Origin: Candidatus Thioglobus autotrophicus
Lineage (GTDB): Bacteria; Pseudomonadota; Gammaproteobacteria; PS1; Pseudothioglobaceae
Length of the DNA stretch: 64,000 nt
Reading direction: 5' to 3'
Assembly: GCF_001293165.1 (NCBI RefSeq)
Contig: NZ_CP010552.1
Span: 620,001 to 684,000 of the forward strand
Shown here: in pieces, positions 4,391 through 53,494 of the stretch
How the letters are laid out: the number at the start of each line of letters is the position of its first letter
Numbering within the stretch: position 1 is the stretch's first letter
The notes under the pieces: model-generated
Databases searched by the model: none
Told to the model about the DNA's origin: nothing
Seen by the model: the letters and a program-made list of their open reading frames with translations, nothing else
Position numbers and translations under genes: made by a program

Positions 4391-4623
4391 AAAATCTTAT
4401 TTCCTGAAGAGTCTCGATGCTCATACCCTGCCATACGAATATCGCGCTCAATAATTCGCATAATAGCTCTACCCGAGGTATGCATATCAGCAATGCCAAT
4501 GTTCTTTTCATATTGGGTTTTCACCATATCGTATGAGGCATAAGCAGCAATAATAACGATTGAACTAACAGCAAGTGCCACTAGCATTTCAACCAAAGTA
4601 AAGGCTTTTCTATTCAGCAACAT
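4288..4623 (-). pseudogene. pilW: pilW 5' part, truncated by the IS
   Basis: Genuine pilW sequence spans 4391-4623 and encodes about 77 residues. KAFTLVEMLVALAVSSIVII is a classic class III signal and pilin helix with the conserved Glu5 after the processing site. RAIMRIIERDIRMAGYEH is the PilW landmark that follows. After residue 77 the frame enters the IS and stops at 4288, adding about 33 foreign residues, for a 111-residue product. PilW joins PilV and PilX in the minor-pilin priming complex. The start overlaps the pilV end by 14 nt. The truncated product would keep the membrane helix but lose the globular head. Confidence 0.88.
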
Positions 4624-47930: not shown

Positions 47931-50900
47931 ATGCCCTACTTATATCCTAATAATGCCAGCCCTTTAAATTCTGGCCTGAAAACCTATTGGGGCTCTTTGT
48001 ATGGCAGTGCCGATGCGCTGGCTTTAATCGAGTATGCTCAGCAACAGTCTCAGGTTGTCTTGCTTATCGCCAATGATATTGCTCACCTTGACACACTATA
48101 CCAATCTCTAAATTTTTACAATGATACGTTGAAGATTCTCAAATTTGATAACTGGGAAGTATTGCCGTATGATCAATTTTCACCACATCCAGATATCACC
48201 TCAAACCGTCTTGCTACTCTATCTAAACTTAGGCAACTAAAACACGGCATTGTGCTCACCACATTGGAGACTCTATTTTCCCATTTGTGTCCAATTGAGT
48301 TTAGTGAAAAGTACAGCTTCGATCTGAAAATAGGTGACAACATAGATCCTGTTTCACTCAGCGAAAAACTGCTAAAAATTGGCTATAACCGTGTCACAAC
48401 TGTGATGGAACATGGTGAATTTAATATTCGTGGCTCATTAATTGACTTGTACCCAATGGGCGCAAGCAAACCTTATCGACTCGATCTATTTGACCAAGAA
48501 GTAGAAACCATACGCACCTTTGACACCTCAACCCAGCGTAGTGAATCACAGGTGGACGCAATTGCACTATTGCCAGCAAGAGAATTTGCCACGGATGAAT
48601 CAAGTATTGAATTATTCAAGCACAACTACAATCAAGCTTTTAGTAAACAAGGCTTTATCTATACCGAAATTAGCGAAGGTCGACTGCCTGGCGGAATTGA
48701 GTTTTATTTACCGCTATTTTTTAATGCCACCAATACACTGTTTGACTATCTACCCAGCACGCTCACCATTGCCACCACTGCTGGATTTTCGACATTGGTA
48801 GATCAGACTTTTGCTGATATCCAATCCCGATTTGATCATGCCAAACAAGATTTAGATCGTCCTCCTCTAGCTATTAATCGTGTATTTTTAAGTAAAGAGC
48901 GTCTATTTTCTGCCATCAAGCAACACCCACAACTGATTATCAGCCCTTCAAAACTCGAAGACAAGGCTGGGAATCTGAATTTTTCCTCAAAACTTTTACC
49001 GCCACTACGCATTGACCCGCAGGCTAAAAATCCGCTGGCCAAATTAGCTAGCTTTACAGCACGCTTTAAACAAAAAATACTCATCGTTTGCGAATCTCAA
49101 GGTAGGCAAAGTGTCTTAGAAGAGTTGCTAAAAAATCATCATCTTGAGGCGCACCAAACCCAAGACTGGCAACATTTTTTAGCCAGTGATGAATTACTTA
49201 ATATTACCCATCAAGCACTTTCTCAAGGGTTGTTAAGTCCTGAACTGGCCGTCATTACCGAGGACAATTTATTTGGCCAAGAAGTAGTACAACAACAACG
49301 CAGGCGCCGTGCTAAACATAAAGATTTTGACGAGGCAATTAAAAGTCTAGTCGAGATTAAAACGGGCGACCCAATCGTGCATGAAAACTACGGGGTGGGA
49401 CGTTATTTAGGCTTAAAAACACAAACTTATGACGGTCAATCTCAAGATTTTTTACAACTTGAGTACGCTGGCGGTGCCAAGCTGATGGTGCCCATGACCT
49501 CACTAAATCTTATTTCCCGTTATTCCGGCGCATCGCCAGAAAGCGCACCCTTGCACAAACTCGGCACGCCGCAATGGAGCAAGGCCAAACAAAAAGCCGG
49601 CGAAGCCTTGCACGATGTGGCCGCCGAATTGCTAGAGATTTATGCTAAACGTGAGTCACAAACTGGCTTTGCTTTTCCAGAGCCAAATGATGCTTATTCT
49701 TCTTTTGTATCGAGTTTTGCTTTTGAAGAAACGCCTGACCAACTTAAAACTATGGGCGAGGTTTTGGCAGATATGCGCTCACACAAGCCGATGGATCGTT
49801 TGGTATGTGGCGATGTAGGCTTTGGCAAAACAGAAATTGCCATGCGCGCTGCATTCTTAGCTGTGGAAGCCGGTAAGCAAGTAGCCATTCTTGTGCCCAC
49901 CACATTACTAGCCAATCAACACTATCAATCATTTGTTGATCGATTTAGCGACTACCCAGTAGAAATTGCCGCACTCTCACGCTTTCAAACGCCAAAAGAG
50001 CAAAAACTCATTATTGAAAAGCTCAACACGGGTCAAGTGGATATTGTCATTGGCACCCATAAGATTATCCAAGGCAGTATTAAATACAAAGATCTTGGAC
50101 TGATCATTATCGATGAAGAGCATCGCTTTGGTGTTAAGCAAAAAGAAGCTTTGAAGAAACTTCGTGGACAGAGTGATATCCTCACCATGACGGCCACACC
50201 GATTCCGCGTACTTTAAATATGGCACTTGGTTCACTCAGAGAATTATCCATTATTGCTACGCCGCCTGCCAAGCGTAGTGCTATTCAAACCTTTGTGCAA
50301 GAGTGGCAGGATGATAATATCAAAGAAGCTATCAGCCGTGAGTTGCACCGTGGTGGGCAAATTTTTGTTTTACATAATGATATTGACTCGATTGACAACA
50401 TGGCGCAAAGTTTGTCAGAACTCATGCCAAATGTACACGTTCGAATCGCCCATGGGCAAATGCCAACGCGTGAACTTGAGCACATCATGAGTGATTTTTA
50501 TCATGCGCGTTTCCAAATTTTGGTGTGTACCACCATCATTGAAACCGGTATTGATATCCCTAATGCCAATACCATCATCATTAATAATGCCCAAAATTTT
50601 GGCCTCGCACAATTGCACCAATTGCGCGGGCGTGTGGGACGCTCACATCACAGGGCCTATGCCTACTTGATTATTAAATCGCATCAATCACTCTCTAAAG
50701 ATGCCAAAAAACGCCTTGCTGCCATTGAATCTTTAGAAGAGCTGGGCGCTGGGTTTATGCTTGCTAATCATGATTTGGAGATTCGTGGCGCAGGCGATTT
50801 GCTCGGCGACAATCAATCAGGGAAAATTAGCGAAATTGGTTTTAATCTTTACCACGATTTACTCAAGCGTACGATTGAGGCAATGCGTGCAGGGCGAAAG

Positions 50901-51359
50901 ATTAACCTGGATGATCCGATTAATCATGAAATCCAAATAGACTGTGGATTGCCTTCCATTATTCCTCAGAGTTATCTGGAAGATGTGCATGAACGCTTAG
51001 TTTTATATAAGCGCATCGCCGGTTGTAAGACTAATAACGAACTAAAAGAATTACAAATTGAGATGATTGATCGTTTTGGATTATTGCCAGACTCTACCAA
51101 GCATTTATTTGCCAATACACGACTCAAACTTTTTTGCGAAAAAATCGGAATTGATGAAATTAATCTTTATGATGACAAGGCCATCATCACTTTTGGTACT
51201 AAAAACACCATAGAGCCAATCAAAATCATTCAATTGATCCAAAAACAGCCTAAAAATTACCAACTCAAGGGTCAAAACCAGTTAATTGTGAAAGAAAGCA
51301 TGCCTGAAGATATCAGGCGTATCGAGCTAGTAGAAAATTTGTTAAAAAAGCTAAATTAG
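47931..51359 (+). CDS. mfd: Transcription-repair coupling factor
   Basis: Mfd removes stalled RNA polymerase and recruits UvrA. The 1,142-residue protein has UvrB-like domains (~1-330), the RNA polymerase-interacting CarD-like domain (GDPIVHENYGVGRYLGL), helicase motifs GDVGFGKTE, DEEHRFGVKQKE, TATPIPRTL and QLRGRVGRSHHRAYAYL, and a C-terminal TRCF domain. It converges with the membrane protein gene at 51351, overlapping by 9 bp. Confidence 0.96.
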   Translation: MPYLYPNNASPLNSGLKTYWGSLYGSADALALIEYAQQQSQVVLLIANDIAHLDTLYQSLNFYNDTLKILKFDNWEVLPYDQFSPHPDITSNRLATLSKLRQLKHGIVLTTLETLFSHLCPIEFSEKYSFDLKIGDNIDPVSLSEKLLKIGYNRVTTVMEHGEFNIRGSLIDLYPMGASKPYRLDLFDQEVETIRTFDTSTQRSESQVDAIALLPAREFATDESSIELFKHNYNQAFSKQGFIYTEISEGRLPGGIEFYLPLFFNATNTLFDYLPSTLTIATTAGFSTLVDQTFADIQSRFDHAKQDLDRPPLAINRVFLSKERLFSAIKQHPQLIISPSKLEDKAGNLNFSSKLLPPLRIDPQAKNPLAKLASFTARFKQKILIVCESQGRQSVLEELLKNHHLEAHQTQDWQHFLASDELLNITHQALSQGLLSPELAVITEDNLFGQEVVQQQRRRRAKHKDFDEAIKSLVEIKTGDPIVHENYGVGRYLGLKTQTYDGQSQDFLQLEYAGGAKLMVPMTSLNLISRYSGASPESAPLHKLGTPQWSKAKQKAGEALHDVAAELLEIYAKRESQTGFAFPEPNDAYSSFVSSFAFEETPDQLKTMGEVLADMRSHKPMDRLVCGDVGFGKTEIAMRAAFLAVEAGKQVAILVPTTLLANQHYQSFVDRFSDYPVEIAALSRFQTPKEQKLIIEKLNTGQVDIVIGTHKIIQGSIKYKDLGLIIIDEEHRFGVKQKEALKKLRGQSDILTMTATPIPRTLNMALGSLRELSIIATPPAKRSAIQTFVQEWQDDNIKEAISRELHRGGQIFVLHNDIDSIDNMAQSLSELMPNVHVRIAHGQMPTRELEHIMSDFYHARFQILVCTTIIETGIDIPNANTIIINNAQNFGLAQLHQLRGRVGRSHHRAYAYLIIKSHQSLSKDAKKRLAAIESLEELGAGFMLANHDLEIRGAGDLLGDNQSGKISEIGFNLYHDLLKRTIEAMRAGRKINLDDPINHEIQIDCGLPSIIPQSYLEDVHERLVLYKRIAGCKTNNELKELQIEMIDRFGLLPDSTKHLFANTRLKLFCEKIGIDEINLYDDKAIITFGTKNTIEPIKIIQLIQKQPKNYQLKGQNQLIVKESMPEDIRRIELVENLLKKLN

Positions 51360-51902
51360 CTTGTTTTTTATCAATTGCGGGGTGAAAAATTTAAATATTA
51401 GGTAGATAAATACAATGCCACCCAAGATATCACTCATTAAGTAGGTTTGGATAAATAACGAGGGATCGGGGATAATTTTGCCATTCATTGGATAAACAAA
51501 CACCTTAGCCACTGTTGCTACAAGCGAGGCCAAAATCACCAAAAACATGACATGCGCGTAGTTAATCTTGCCAGAATCAAAGAAATCTGACAAATGAAAA
51601 AATCGCATCATTAAAATTGAGGCAATCGGTGCGACACTATCAATCAGCTTTCCTAAGTAGCTATAGATATGTATTGCTTCCCAAACGCCGCCTTTACTGA
51701 TAAAAGTGGCTAGAAAATAGCCCACCACCACGCCTGGTAAAGATTTAAAACCAAATAACAAAGGCGCAAGTATAGCCGCGCCCATTGGCAGCCAAATATA
51801 ATTACCGATGGAAATATCCACGTGATCAAAAGGCACAATGATTAATCTGGAGATGAGCACCGCCACAAAGGCAATTAGGTTGTAAGTGAGAAATTGCTTC
51901 AT
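51351..51902 (-). CDS. MASE1-like membrane protein, paralog 3
   Basis: The 183-residue protein has about five or six membrane helices and no soluble domain. YIWLPMGAAILAPLLFG then FKSLPGVVVGYFLA resembles the MASE1 sensor-domain motif (W-P-x-G followed by an LPG segment). A later YLMSDILGGIVFIYLI resembles the second MASE1 motif. NYAHVMFLVI has a His conserved in all three paralogs. It overlaps paralog 2 by 4 bp (ATGA). MASE1 is normally fused to signalling enzymes; none is fused here. Function unknown. Confidence 0.75.
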   Translation of the reverse strand: MKQFLTYNLIAFVAVLISRLIIVPFDHVDISIGNYIWLPMGAAILAPLLFGFKSLPGVVVGYFLATFISKGGVWEAIHIYSYLGKLIDSVAPIASILMMRFFHLSDFFDSGKINYAHVMFLVILASLVATVAKVFVYPMNGKIIPDPSLFIQTYLMSDILGGIVFIYLIFKFFTPQLIKNKLI

Positions 51903-52435
51903 TGTTTAATTAAAAATGTTGATATTCTACTTACCACATAAACAAACACCAAACCACCCAGCATATCTCCTATCAGATAAGTTGAGAAAAATATAGCAGG
52001 ATCTGGAGCAATTGGTAACACACTCATATAGATAAAAAATTTAGATAAGGTATTAATGAAAGCGGTGAGGATAATCAGAAAAACAACGTGGTGAAAATTC
52101 AGCTTTTGGCCATCAAAGAATTTTGATAGATTGAATAGTCTCATCATTAACATGGCAACTATTGGCGCCAAAGAGCCAACTACCACATGACCTGTAAACC
52201 CTGGAAAACCTAAGCCAGACCAACTGTCCCAAAAGAAATATCCGAACAAAGTGTTGGCGATTGCTATCCCGGGCAGAACGCCAAAACCAAACAACAGGTA
52301 AGAAAAAATACTCGCACCTATCGGTAAAAATAGCAAATTGCCACTGGCAAAGCTGTCATTCGCCAAACCCTCTACCATTAATAAAGAGGTAAGAGACAAG
52401 GTAAGGGCGACTAGATTGTACTTAAAAATTAACAC
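51899..52435 (-). CDS. MASE1-like membrane protein, paralog 2
   Basis: The 178-residue protein shares the pattern of its neighbours: FLPIGASIFSYLLFGFGVLP, NFHHVVFLII and YLIGDMLGGLVFVYV. It is all membrane, with an estimated five or six helices and a very short C-terminal tail. The start appears to be a GTG (52433-52435). It overlaps paralog 3 and lies 43 bp after paralog 1. Confidence 0.72.
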   Translation of the reverse strand: MLIFKYNLVALTLSLTSLLMVEGLANDSFASGNLLFLPIGASIFSYLLFGFGVLPGIAIANTLFGYFFWDSWSGLGFPGFTGHVVVGSLAPIVAMLMMRLFNLSKFFDGQKLNFHHVVFLIILTAFINTLSKFFIYMSVLPIAPDPAIFFSTYLIGDMLGGLVFVYVVSRISTFLIKQ

Positions 52436-52478
52436 ACATGGAACCTAAGGATAATATGGCTCAAATTATACTAGAAAA

Positions 52479-53060
52479 TTAGATTGATTTTTGTGGGAAA
52501 AACCCTTTAAGTATTGGCACTATAACATGCAAAGTTAAGTAAATAACCACCAGGCCACCCAGAGCGTCACCCGTAATATAATGGGTGATAAAGGTCACAG
52601 CGTTAATATTGAGGGTGAGATCTTGTGTATAAGCAAAAAACTTTAATAAAGCGCTAATCACTGATGTAAATGCAATTAAGAACAGCACATGTCGAAAATC
52701 AACTTGGCCTAAATTGGAAAAATTACTCACCCGAGTTTGTTTCATGATACACATAGCCACAATTGGAGCAATTGCACCCGCACAAGCTGACAGCATGCCA
52801 ATGAAGAAGTGGCCATTCCAAGAATTCATTAAAACAACGCCGCCAACAAAACAAGCGGCGATAACACCTGGAAATACACGATAGCCAAATAGCAAATACA
52901 TCAATATTTTTGCACCGAGTGGTAAATACAAATAATGACTCAATACAATTTCACCACTGTTTTCAAACGTACCAGCCCACGTCATCACATACGCCATTGA
53001 AAAAACACTCATAAAGGCTATGAGGTTTTCAATAAAGTAGTTTTGAAATTTTTCAGTCAT
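52479..53060 (-). CDS. MASE1-like membrane protein, paralog 1
   Basis: The 193-residue protein has YLPLGAKILMYLLFGYRVFP, DFRHVLFLIAFTS and YITGDALGGLVVIYLTL, the same three blocks as paralogs 2 and 3. It begins with ATG at 53058-53060, against one arm of an 11-bp inverted repeat. It is the first of the three in transcription order, 72 bp after the winged-helix regulator. Divergence between the paralogs is substantial, so duplication is old. Confidence 0.75.
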   Translation of the reverse strand: MTEKFQNYFIENLIAFMSVFSMAYVMTWAGTFENSGEIVLSHYLYLPLGAKILMYLLFGYRVFPGVIAACFVGGVVLMNSWNGHFFIGMLSACAGAIAPIVAMCIMKQTRVSNFSNLGQVDFRHVLFLIAFTSVISALLKFFAYTQDLTLNINAVTFITHYITGDALGGLVVIYLTLHVIVPILKGFFPQKSI

Positions 53061-53132: not shown

Positions 53133-53414
53133 TTACTTATTGTAAGTTAGGATCATTGAGCGCTTATCAAGGCTAGATTGTGTCGCAGTAATAATATTTT
53201 CACTCAGTAAAACACCCACAGCTCTCTTGATTGTAGAGAGTGAATACTTAAAAAAGTATGCGTCTTTGGTAATTCTAGTGATGTTAGCATCCTTAGAATG
53301 CACCACAAACTCTAATACGGATTTTTCTACTTCTGACAATTTGTCAAAACCCATTTCACGCTCGTAAGTATCTAGTGAACGTCTTAATTCAAATAATTTT
53401 TCTAATGCTTTCAT
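53133..53414 (-). CDS. Small winged-helix (MarR-like) regulator
   Basis: The 93-residue protein is a small DNA-binding domain: LSEVEKSVLEFVVHSKDANI, then a recognition helix around YSLSTIKRAVGVLLSENIIT and a wing with SLDKRSMILTY. It resembles a MarR-type or similar winged helix without an effector domain. The start is the ATG at 53412-53414, with a GAGGTGG ribosome site; an upstream in-frame start at 53450 is less likely. It leads the three MASE1-like genes and may regulate them. Direct repeats at its promoter suggest autoregulation. Confidence 0.75.
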   Translation of the reverse strand: MKALEKLFELRRSLDTYEREMGFDKLSEVEKSVLEFVVHSKDANITRITKDAYFFKYSLSTIKRAVGVLLSENIITATQSSLDKRSMILTYNK

Positions 53415-53457
53415 TTTTTTTCCACCTCTCCTCAAAGGATCTAATAACAAAGGGTAT

Positions 53458-53494
53458 TATAACCTATTATTTTTTTCGTATAACCTATTATTTT
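53458..53494. promoter_or_regulatory. Tandem operator-like repeats at the regulator promoter
   Basis: TATAACCTATTATTTT occurs at 53458-53473 and again at 53479-53494, exactly 21 bp apart, about two helical turns. On the minus strand the downstream copy overlaps a TATAAT -10-like box. Same-face spacing suits binding by two protein dimers. Confidence 0.65.

What the first reader, a model, noticed from the sequence alone, without database searches (positions are those of the whole stretch)
51351..53060. Three tandem stand-alone MASE1-like membrane proteins
All three share a LP-x-GA/K motif followed by LLFG...PG, a conserved His in H-V-x-F-L, and a D-x-LGG block, which resemble the two conserved parts of MASE1 sensor domains. 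MASE1 is normally the input part of diguanylate cyclases or kinases; here three short proteins end just after the last helix, in one operon. They might sense a ligand as a complex, transport something, or pair with a separate enzyme.
Basis: partly seen in the sequence, partly recalled or inferred. Interest (0 to 1): 0.65.

Follow-up and report, generated by a model that had tools for sequence, protein, structure and literature searches.

The report
Membrane receptor-like proteins paired with regulator
Three small membrane proteins that look like half of a known bacterial sensor domain sit behind a small DNA-binding protein, and this pairing recurs in distantly related bacteria and on plasmids, which points to an undescribed two-part device for sensing or importing a small molecule.

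Summary
In detail: three paralogous membrane proteins share the motifs described, and two of them match the N-terminal half only of MASE1 (positions 7-173 and 10-171 of 299). In 83 family genomes 41 have both genes, 2 only the membrane gene, 1 only the regulator, 39 neither. In a beta-proteobacterial family 74 of 90 fetched half-MASE1 loci have a winged-helix gene in the fetched flank, against none in 400 kb of control DNA. Two separate plasmid searches hit the same 8 of 72,556 records, the genes within 300 bases of each other. The predicted membrane fold is that of ECF-transporter S components, but the genome has no EcfT and no GGDEF match. The regulator resembles a MarR protein that stops at the wing. 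Best reading: a two-protein membrane receptor/transcription-factor module, analogous to LytTR Regulatory Systems. An importer with its own repressor is the close rival. Ligand, operator and direct contact are untested.

The parts
53133..53414 (-). 93-aa winged-helix (truncated MarR-like) protein, first gene of the operon; ATG at 53414 preceded by GAGGAGAGG
   Evidence: ORF (listed there from an upstream TTG at 53450); start set from the orthologue alignment; fold; its Pfam hits are to SarA/Rot and CvfB winged helices, below the cut-offs
52479..53060 (-). half-MASE1 membrane protein, copy A (193 aa)
   Evidence: (MASE1 31.6 bits, cut-off 29.8); supported clade of 5 rows from several genomes in the tree
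51899..52435 (-). half-MASE1 membrane protein, copy B (178 aa, GTG start)
   Evidence: no Pfam hit of its own (queried from one codon inside the start); supported clade of 6 rows in the tree
51351..51902 (-). half-MASE1 membrane protein, copy C (183 aa); overlaps copy B by 4 bases
   Evidence: AlphaFold2 model pLDDT 93.5, pTM 0.91, six helices; S-component fold; supported clade of 4 rows in the tree
53458..53494 (-). exact 16-base direct repeat (two copies, 21 bases start to start) upstream of the regulator gene, running into a TATAAT: candidate operator
   Evidence: no shuffle of 200 reached it, but of 22 upstream regions tested only 4 had p at or under 0.05, so conservation is not shown

Best explanation
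The three proteins are the membrane part of a two-gene module: a small winged-helix DNA-binding protein plus one to five membrane proteins that correspond to the N-terminal half of MASE1 and, as modelled for copy C, fold like ECF-transporter S components with six helices. Shown here: the recurrent pairing in gamma-, beta- and one alphaproteobacterium, the two predicted folds, the absence of EcfT and GGDEF matches in this genome. Inferred: each membrane protein binds a small molecule in the S-component-type pocket, and its cytoplasmic face (loop 99-116 and C-terminus) holds or releases the winged-helix protein, which then controls its own operon and perhaps other genes. It would work like a LytTR Regulatory System (membrane inhibitor plus soluble regulator), built from unrelated parts. 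The ordered paralogues A, B and C would be receptors for different ligands or subunits of one hetero-oligomer.
For: Linkage: 41 both / 2 membrane gene only / 1 regulator only / 39 neither in 83 family genomes; relocated copies L059 and L063 keep the regulator plus two membrane genes; two separate class-wide scans of 369 genomes met at the same loci in G113 and G363; all 8 short-ORF loci inspected from the class and phylum scans (L103, L156-L162) have a winged-helix neighbour, five seen by eye and three found by a profile of those five; 74 of 90 loci of one beta family (71 of 87 without the three genomes that trained the profile) against 0 hits in 400 kb of control DNA; 8 of 8 plasmid records shared by two queries; in an alphaproteobacterium the divergent 93-aa 'hypothetical protein' beside the membrane gene matches the SUP05 regulator profile at 18.6 bits. 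The pairing survives three arrangements: regulator upstream on the same strand, divergent, and downstream on the same strand. The regulator aligns with residues 5-95 of MarR and ends at the wing, so MarR's C-terminal helices, which by general knowledge form its dimer and ligand site, are absent; a sensor elsewhere would make sense of that. It is intact beside a membrane-gene remnant in G071 and without a match in G010, a 77%-complete genome. Basic residues put loop 99-116 and the C-terminus in the cytoplasm (positive-inside rule). Four further loci have a half-MASE1 gene beside a response regulator and kinase. The MASE1 domain of YfgF acts independently of c-di-GMP through a cytoplasmic-loop motif (PMC3718329, abstract; that motif was not aligned with these proteins).
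Against: No contact, ligand or regulated target is shown. The pairing fits a transporter with its repressor as well. 16 of 90 beta loci have no such regulator in the fetched flank; six of these have HU- or RodA-like genes (named by my reading) as neighbours instead. The four kinase-linked loci have no hit to any of the three regulator profiles. The regulators of the SUP05 and beta loci are not shown to be homologous to each other (hhalign probability 2.4%). The SUP05 regulator profile also gives 17 weak hits in other genomes of the phylum (E 1.8e-6 to 9.8e-4, frames of 132-334 aa), which I did not follow and which are probably ordinary winged helices. The module travels on plasmids among IS elements, which suits a self-contained transporter cassette better than a sensor with a chromosomal regulon. 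The regulator is more conserved than copies A and B in most genome pairs compared, but not than copy C in all. The direct repeat in the window is not general in the family.
Confidence: 0.48

Rival explanations
1. Small-molecule importers with a local repressor: solitary S-component-like proteins that carry a vitamin or metabolite across the membrane without an EcfT/EcfA motor, their expression set by the adjacent winged-helix protein.
For: Fold: the 21 best rows of the structural comparison are S components, chains of ECF complexes of that size, or CbiM/NikM-type proteins, Z 12.8 to 8.9. About 180 aa and six helices fit. Divergent arrangement at 60 of 90 beta loci is a usual one for a transporter and its repressor (general knowledge). 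Two-gene cassettes on plasmids. Candidate palindromes lie in the shared intergenic region of related beta loci (24 examined).
Against: No EcfT match in this genome. MASE1 relatives with known roles are sensors (general knowledge; YfgF). The regulator persists where the membrane gene is a remnant or not found. Z under about 13 for a helical protein can be a common arrangement (note).
Confidence: 0.36
2. Accessory subunits of two-component systems: the membrane proteins feed a signal to a separate kinase, as MASE1 does in fused kinases, and the winged-helix protein only sets their amount.
For: Four loci (L047, L048, L056, L067) place a half-MASE1 gene next to a kinase and a response regulator; Pfam confirms a periplasmic-binding-protein histidine kinase in L047, L048 and L056 and a LuxR-type response regulator in L048 and L056, the rest being assigned by clustering only. 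In the tree the own-genome copy is sister to a tandem-array copy while the other three form another clade, so the site seems to have received such a gene twice.
Against: Most loci inspected have no kinase nearby. In the own genome the gene is inverted and has genes that I read as transposases next to it, so its position may be an accident of transposition.
Confidence: 0.1
3. Detached MASE1 input domains for a separate diguanylate cyclase.
For: Sequence resemblance to MASE1.
Against: No GGDEF match in the own genome (completeness 100%), while the control search rings in 8 of 14 genomes.
Confidence: 0.02

Closest known systems
MASE1 (PF05231) sensor domain of kinases, diguanylate cyclases and phosphodiesterases
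   Same: N-terminal half of the profile matches (34 of 57 relatives match at E 0.01 or better); the half-domain profile also aligns with the start of a full MASE1 kinase over 105 columns (probability 94.5%, E 8e-8; the kinase's MASE1 match spans 14-298)
   Different: The C-terminal 120 or so profile positions are absent; no fused output domain; the recurrent partner is a separate winged-helix protein
ECF-transporter S components (ThiT, RibU, BioY, FolT)
   Same: Predicted fold and length (ThiT 4muu: Z 12.8, rmsd 3.4, 163 aligned)
   Different: No sequence match to any solved structure; no EcfT/CbiQ match in the genome; 8-15% identity in the structural alignments of rows 1-21
MarR/SarA-type winged-helix regulators
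   Same: Fold (MarR 3bpv: Z 11.1, rmsd 4.8, 90 aligned); invariant D83 and R85 in the wing, a D-x-R motif that I recall from MarR proteins
   Different: 93 aa, ends at the wing; Pfam cut-offs not reached by the window protein
LytTR Regulatory Systems (PMC6193735; abstract and the section on conserved features read)
   Same: Two genes: soluble regulator encoded upstream of a membrane protein; some linked to ABC transporters; direct repeats mostly 9 bases separated by 12 (window: 21 bases start to start)
   Different: The regulator is not of the LytTR family; membrane proteins are MASE1-half/S-component-like; often divergent; the window repeat runs into the TATAAT instead of lying upstream of a -35 site, and is not general in the family

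Membership tests
MASE1 (PF05231) | Profile score over the curated cut-off | tested here: inconclusive
   Copy A 31.6 bits (over 29.8), copy C 25.6 (under), copy B no hit; in the genome search none of the matches passed the cut-off; 34 of 57 relatives match at E 0.01 or better
MASE1 (PF05231) | Match over the whole domain (299 positions) | tested here: not met
   Matches span positions 7-173 and 10-171 only; a full MASE1 kinase spans 14-298
MASE1 (PF05231) | Fused to a cytoplasmic output domain | tested here: not met
   ORFs of 178-193 aa; in copy C the last predicted helix ends at 179 of 183
ECF S component | Six-helix S-component fold | tested here: met
   Model of copy C pLDDT 93.5; rows 1-21 are S components, ECF-complex chains of that size or CbiM/NikM-type, Z 12.8-8.9, next row Z 8.3; Foldseek prob 0.98-0.99 but E 0.23-0.36 for the two best
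ECF S component | EcfT partner in the genome | tested here: not met
   No match to PF02361 (CbiQ) in the own genome; control rings in 10 of 14
ECF S component | Binds and imports a vitamin or metal | not testable with these tools
   Needs binding or uptake assays
MarR family | Winged-helix DNA-binding fold | tested here: met
   Model pLDDT 93.2; best rows include ZitR, MarR, AdcR and MexR, with other winged helices such as RPA32C among them
MarR family | C-terminal helices after the wing (dimer and ligand site) | tested here: not met
   Protein of 93 residues ends after strand 87-91; aligns with residues 5-95 of the 137-residue MarR chain
LytTR Regulatory System | LytTR-family regulator | tested here: not met
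   Regulator is a winged helix
LytTR Regulatory System | Regulator gene upstream of a membrane inhibitor gene | tested here: met
   Gene order in the window and its relatives; inhibition itself untested, and many beta loci are divergent
LytTR Regulatory System | Conserved direct repeats just upstream of the operon promoter | tested here: inconclusive
   Repeat in the window and in L042; none found in the L036 stretch searched; 4 of 22 upstream regions with p at or under 0.05

The most novel reading that the evidence does not exclude
A new class of transmembrane signalling: S-component-fold receptors, free of any kinase or cyclase, control in trans a MarR-like DNA-binding protein that lacks the usual sensing and dimer helices. 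The MASE1 sensor domain would then contain an S-component-fold receptor that is used either fused to enzymes or, as here, as a separate protein.
Probability: 0.42. Interest if true: 0.8.

Novelty: new variant of a known kind. Interest (0 to 1): 0.62.

Why it matters
It joins orphan 'hypothetical' membrane genes and orphan small regulators into one testable module found in marine sulfur oxidisers of the SUP05 group, in beta-proteobacteria including Cupriavidus metallidurans, and on plasmids. It links MASE1 to the S-component fold, which suggests where a ligand would bind. It offers a small system in which to ask how a membrane receptor can talk to DNA without phosphorylation or a second messenger.

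Tried and rejected
Separate cyclase partner: rejected for this genome. Classical ECF transporter: no EcfT match. Anti-phage defence: five proteins scanned; only weak CARF-protein hits for the window regulator (E 0.0015 and 0.0025), none for the other four. MarR_EPS (TIGR04176): the regulators scanned give no such hit; the Marivivens locus has a separate MarR_EPS gene. Recent tandem amplification: rejected, since A, B and C fall into separate supported groups shared between species. A common operator: TTAGC-N-GCTAA-type palindromes with at most one mismatch in 12 of 24 intergenic regions of related beta loci against 0.67 expected from mononucleotide shuffles, but 41 sites with at most one mismatch (spacers 4-6) lie in 220 kb of control DNA; the direct repeat of the window is not general; both are kept as leads only. 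Greater conservation of the regulator: the alignment means (57%, 29%) are not like for like, because the membrane set mixes paralogues; window-to-relative identities are 76-90% for the regulator, 68-73% for copy A, 53-97% for B, 77-98% for C. Viral contigs with the regulator: no relative. Own-regulator search of plasmids: no match. Papers: searches for MASE1 with 'stand-alone', UhpB, 'S component', MarR, SUP05, BioY, 'winged helix' and 'ECF transporter' listed four papers in all and none by title or abstract start on this pairing; two searches looked for analogous systems. Read: PMC3718329 (abstract), PMC6193735 (abstract and one section); the rest as listings only. One search compared the wrong end of a kinase by my error; one search replaces it.

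Not tested: structures of beta or alpha proteins, any complex, homology between the regulator families beyond.
Full report
What is there. Three minus-strand ORFs at 51351-51902 (C), 51899-52435 (B) and 52479-53060 (A) encode proteins of 183, 178 and 193 aa. Pfam finds MASE1 in A and C, over profile positions 7-173 and 10-171 of 299, and nothing in B; among 57 relatives scanned, 34 match MASE1 at E 0.01 or better. The genome (1,512,449 bases, one contig, completeness 100%) has a fourth copy at C1:1166707-1167246. Copy C is 98% identical to a protein of a 'Candidatus Thioglobus sp.' MAG, so I place the window in the SUP05/Thioglobus group.

The missed gene. Upstream in the same orientation lies a 93-aa ORF with an ATG at 53414 and a purine-rich ribosome-binding stretch. 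In the relatives whose upstream flank is held, its orthologue precedes the membrane genes of the array. The Pfam hits of the window protein are weak, to SarA/Rot and CvfB winged helices; 5 of 16 relatives match MarR. A model from 24 sequences has pLDDT 93.2. The best structural matches include ZitR, MarR and relatives; the MarR match covers residues 5-95 of a 137-residue chain, and the protein ends at the wing.

How tight is the pairing? Family level: 83 genomes were searched with each profile; 41 have both, 2 only the membrane gene (G073, G074), 1 only the regulator (G010), 39 neither. The Fisher p-value of 4e-20 takes no account of shared descent. In four MAGs the contig ends 0-350 bases after the regulator, so pairs split over contigs are not evidence against adjacency. 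Two relocated copies, L059 and L063, sit among other genes and still have the regulator plus two membrane genes. Class level: scans of 369 genomes with the membrane profile gave 13 genomes, with the regulator profile 4, the own genome included in both. Two others (G113, G363) are in both lists, with the genes next to each other. The fourth regulator hit (G271) is in a 154-aa MarR-like ORF, and G271 has no membrane match. Of the other ten membrane-profile genomes, eight have the match in frames of 504-1152 aa, as expected for MASE1 fused to other domains, and two in short frames (G305, G174); G305 (L103) has a divergent winged-helix gene; G174 was not followed beyond a look at its ORFs. In a phylum scan of 398 genomes the regulator profile gave 17 weak hits besides the own one (E 1.8e-6 to 9.8e-4), in frames of 132-334 aa; I did not follow them.

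Beta-proteobacteria and others. A phylum scan of 398 genomes with the membrane profile gave 30 with a match, several in short frames. I inspected eight loci with short frames: L103 and L156-L162. The winged-helix neighbour was seen by eye at L103 and L156-L159; a profile of those five then found one at L160 (divergent), L161 (downstream, same strand) and L162 (upstream, overlapping by a few bases) as well. The profile was also tested on the family of G632, which I take for Burkholderiaceae because contig G1092:C4 has the length of the C. metallidurans CH34 record. There 71 of 279 genomes have a half-MASE1 match, 100 match rows in all. I fetched 90 loci: the 30 given by that call and 60 further stretches; the rows not fetched separately are mostly fragments or second copies. 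74 of 90 loci have a regulator hit: 60 divergent on the 5' side, 13 same strand on the 3' side, 1 antisense inside an over-long ORF; 65 of the 90 have it within 350 bases by the ORF ends as called. Three of the 90 come from genomes that trained the profile; without them it is 71 of 87. Many of the genomes are close relatives, so the loci are not independent. Control: 20 stretches of 20 kb from the same family have no hit. The 16 loci without a hit were listed; six of them have HU- or RodA-like genes as neighbours instead, by my reading of the sequences.

Plasmids and an alphaproteobacterium. A beta membrane protein finds 8 of 72,556 plasmid records, and one from another genus finds the same 8. 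A beta regulator also finds the same 8, within 300 bases of the membrane gene in each. In five annotated records the membrane gene is a 'hypothetical protein' divergent from a gene annotated as a winged-helix protein (three), a transcriptional regulator (one) or a hypothetical protein (Polaromonas); transposase genes are near in four of the five. A membrane protein from G113 found one weak plasmid match (E 5e-3), in Marivivens; that protein matches the membrane profile at 64.3 bits. The 93-aa hypothetical protein divergent from it matches the SUP05 regulator profile at 18.6 bits. I looked there because the pairing predicted it.

Structure of the membrane part. The model of copy C from 57 sequences has pLDDT 93.5 and pTM 0.91, with six helices. 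No solved structure matches by sequence. Foldseek ranks BioY and ThiT first (probability 0.98-0.99, E 0.23-0.36). In the second look, rows 1-21 are S components, chains of ECF complexes of that size, or CbiM/NikM-type proteins, from ThiT 4muu (Z 12.8, rmsd 3.4, 163 aligned) to CbiM (Z 8.9); the next rows are methane monooxygenase subunits at Z 8.3 and below. The best Z is just below the value of about 13 that the tool gives as a caution for helical bundles, but the clean run of one fold and the full coverage speak for it. Pfam, as I recall and from no call, also groups MASE1 with S-component families in one clan. Basic residues are concentrated in loop 99-116 (2.95 K+R on average) and at the C-terminus (1.93), which puts these in the cytoplasm; the conserved F107 lies in that loop, H117 and L121 at its edge. 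The membrane profiles of SUP05 and beta proteins are related (hhalign 98.1%, E 1.3e-13), and the half-MASE1 profile also aligns with the start of a full MASE1 kinase. The two regulator profiles are not significantly alike.

Paralogues. In a 70-row tree, copies A, B and C lie in separate supported groups with members from several genomes. The array is thus an old set of distinct proteins, not a fresh amplification. The fourth copy of this genome sits, inverted, beside a periplasmic-binding-protein histidine kinase and a LuxR-type response regulator, next to genes that I read as transposases. It is sister to the fourth array copy of a close relative, whereas the copies beside the same kinase system in L047, L048 and L067 form another clade. 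No regulator profile has a hit in these four loci.

Mechanism. The linkage is shown; the mechanism is inferred. A regulator without MarR's C-terminal helices needs a signal from elsewhere, and its usual neighbour is a membrane protein with a receptor-type fold. LytTR Regulatory Systems are a documented precedent for a two-gene membrane inhibitor plus regulator (PMC6193735, abstract and one section). In that paper most direct repeats are 9 bases separated by 12, that is 21 start to start; the window has an exact 16-base repeat 21 bases apart upstream of the operon, though most relatives lack one (some of its 22 regions lie inside a neighbouring regulator gene). The regulator gene is intact beside a membrane-gene remnant in G071 and without a detected one in G010, a 77%-complete genome, which hints at targets beyond the operon. 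Against this, a divergent regulator on a mobile two-gene cassette is also what a transporter with its repressor looks like.

Novelty. None of the paper searches made listed a description of this pairing; the library holds only open-licence papers. I rate it a new variant of a known kind, with a categorically new signalling class as the bold reading.

Noticed in passing
L056 2326-8713 (G000:C1 about 1162825-1169212): Fourth half-MASE1 copy lies, inverted, beside a PhnD-like periplasmic-binding-domain histidine kinase and LuxR-type response regulator, with two rhodanese-domain genes and genes that read like IS3-family transposases next to it.
   Followed up: partly
L101 6538-9917: In G113 the regulator, two membrane genes and an ABC transporter ATPase gene follow each other with no gap or small overlaps, then a gene that reads like its permease; the module may act with a transporter there.
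   Followed up: partly
L102 4095-7568: In G363 two genes that read like an ABC transporter and a QueF-like gene precede the regulator and membrane gene.
   Followed up: no
L304 4667-5455 and L300 6439-6801: In G030 the frame with the membrane protein has an extra N-terminal stretch of about 120 aa that resembles a separate small gene beside the lone regulator in G010; no Pfam hit for either.
   Followed up: partly
L036 about 4520-4525: The regulator frame of this Thioglobus MAG begins in undetermined bases, so a 326-aa ORF that joins the PfkB kinase and the regulator is not to be trusted.
   Followed up: partly
Beta loci L182-L208, intergenic region: Two recurrent palindromes, TTAGC-N6-GCTAA and AATTGA-N6-TCAATT-like (the latter in 9 of the 16 regions listed), between the divergent regulator and membrane genes; the second was not tested against a control.
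   Followed up: partly
G063:C62, G033:C1, G031:C61, G070:C16 (L305-L308): Contigs end 0-350 bases after the regulator gene, as if the membrane-gene array were a strain-variable or repeat-like breakpoint.
   Followed up: no
window 51351-51359: Copy C and the convergent ORF 47931-51359, which reads like mfd, overlap by nine bases at their stop codons.
   Followed up: no
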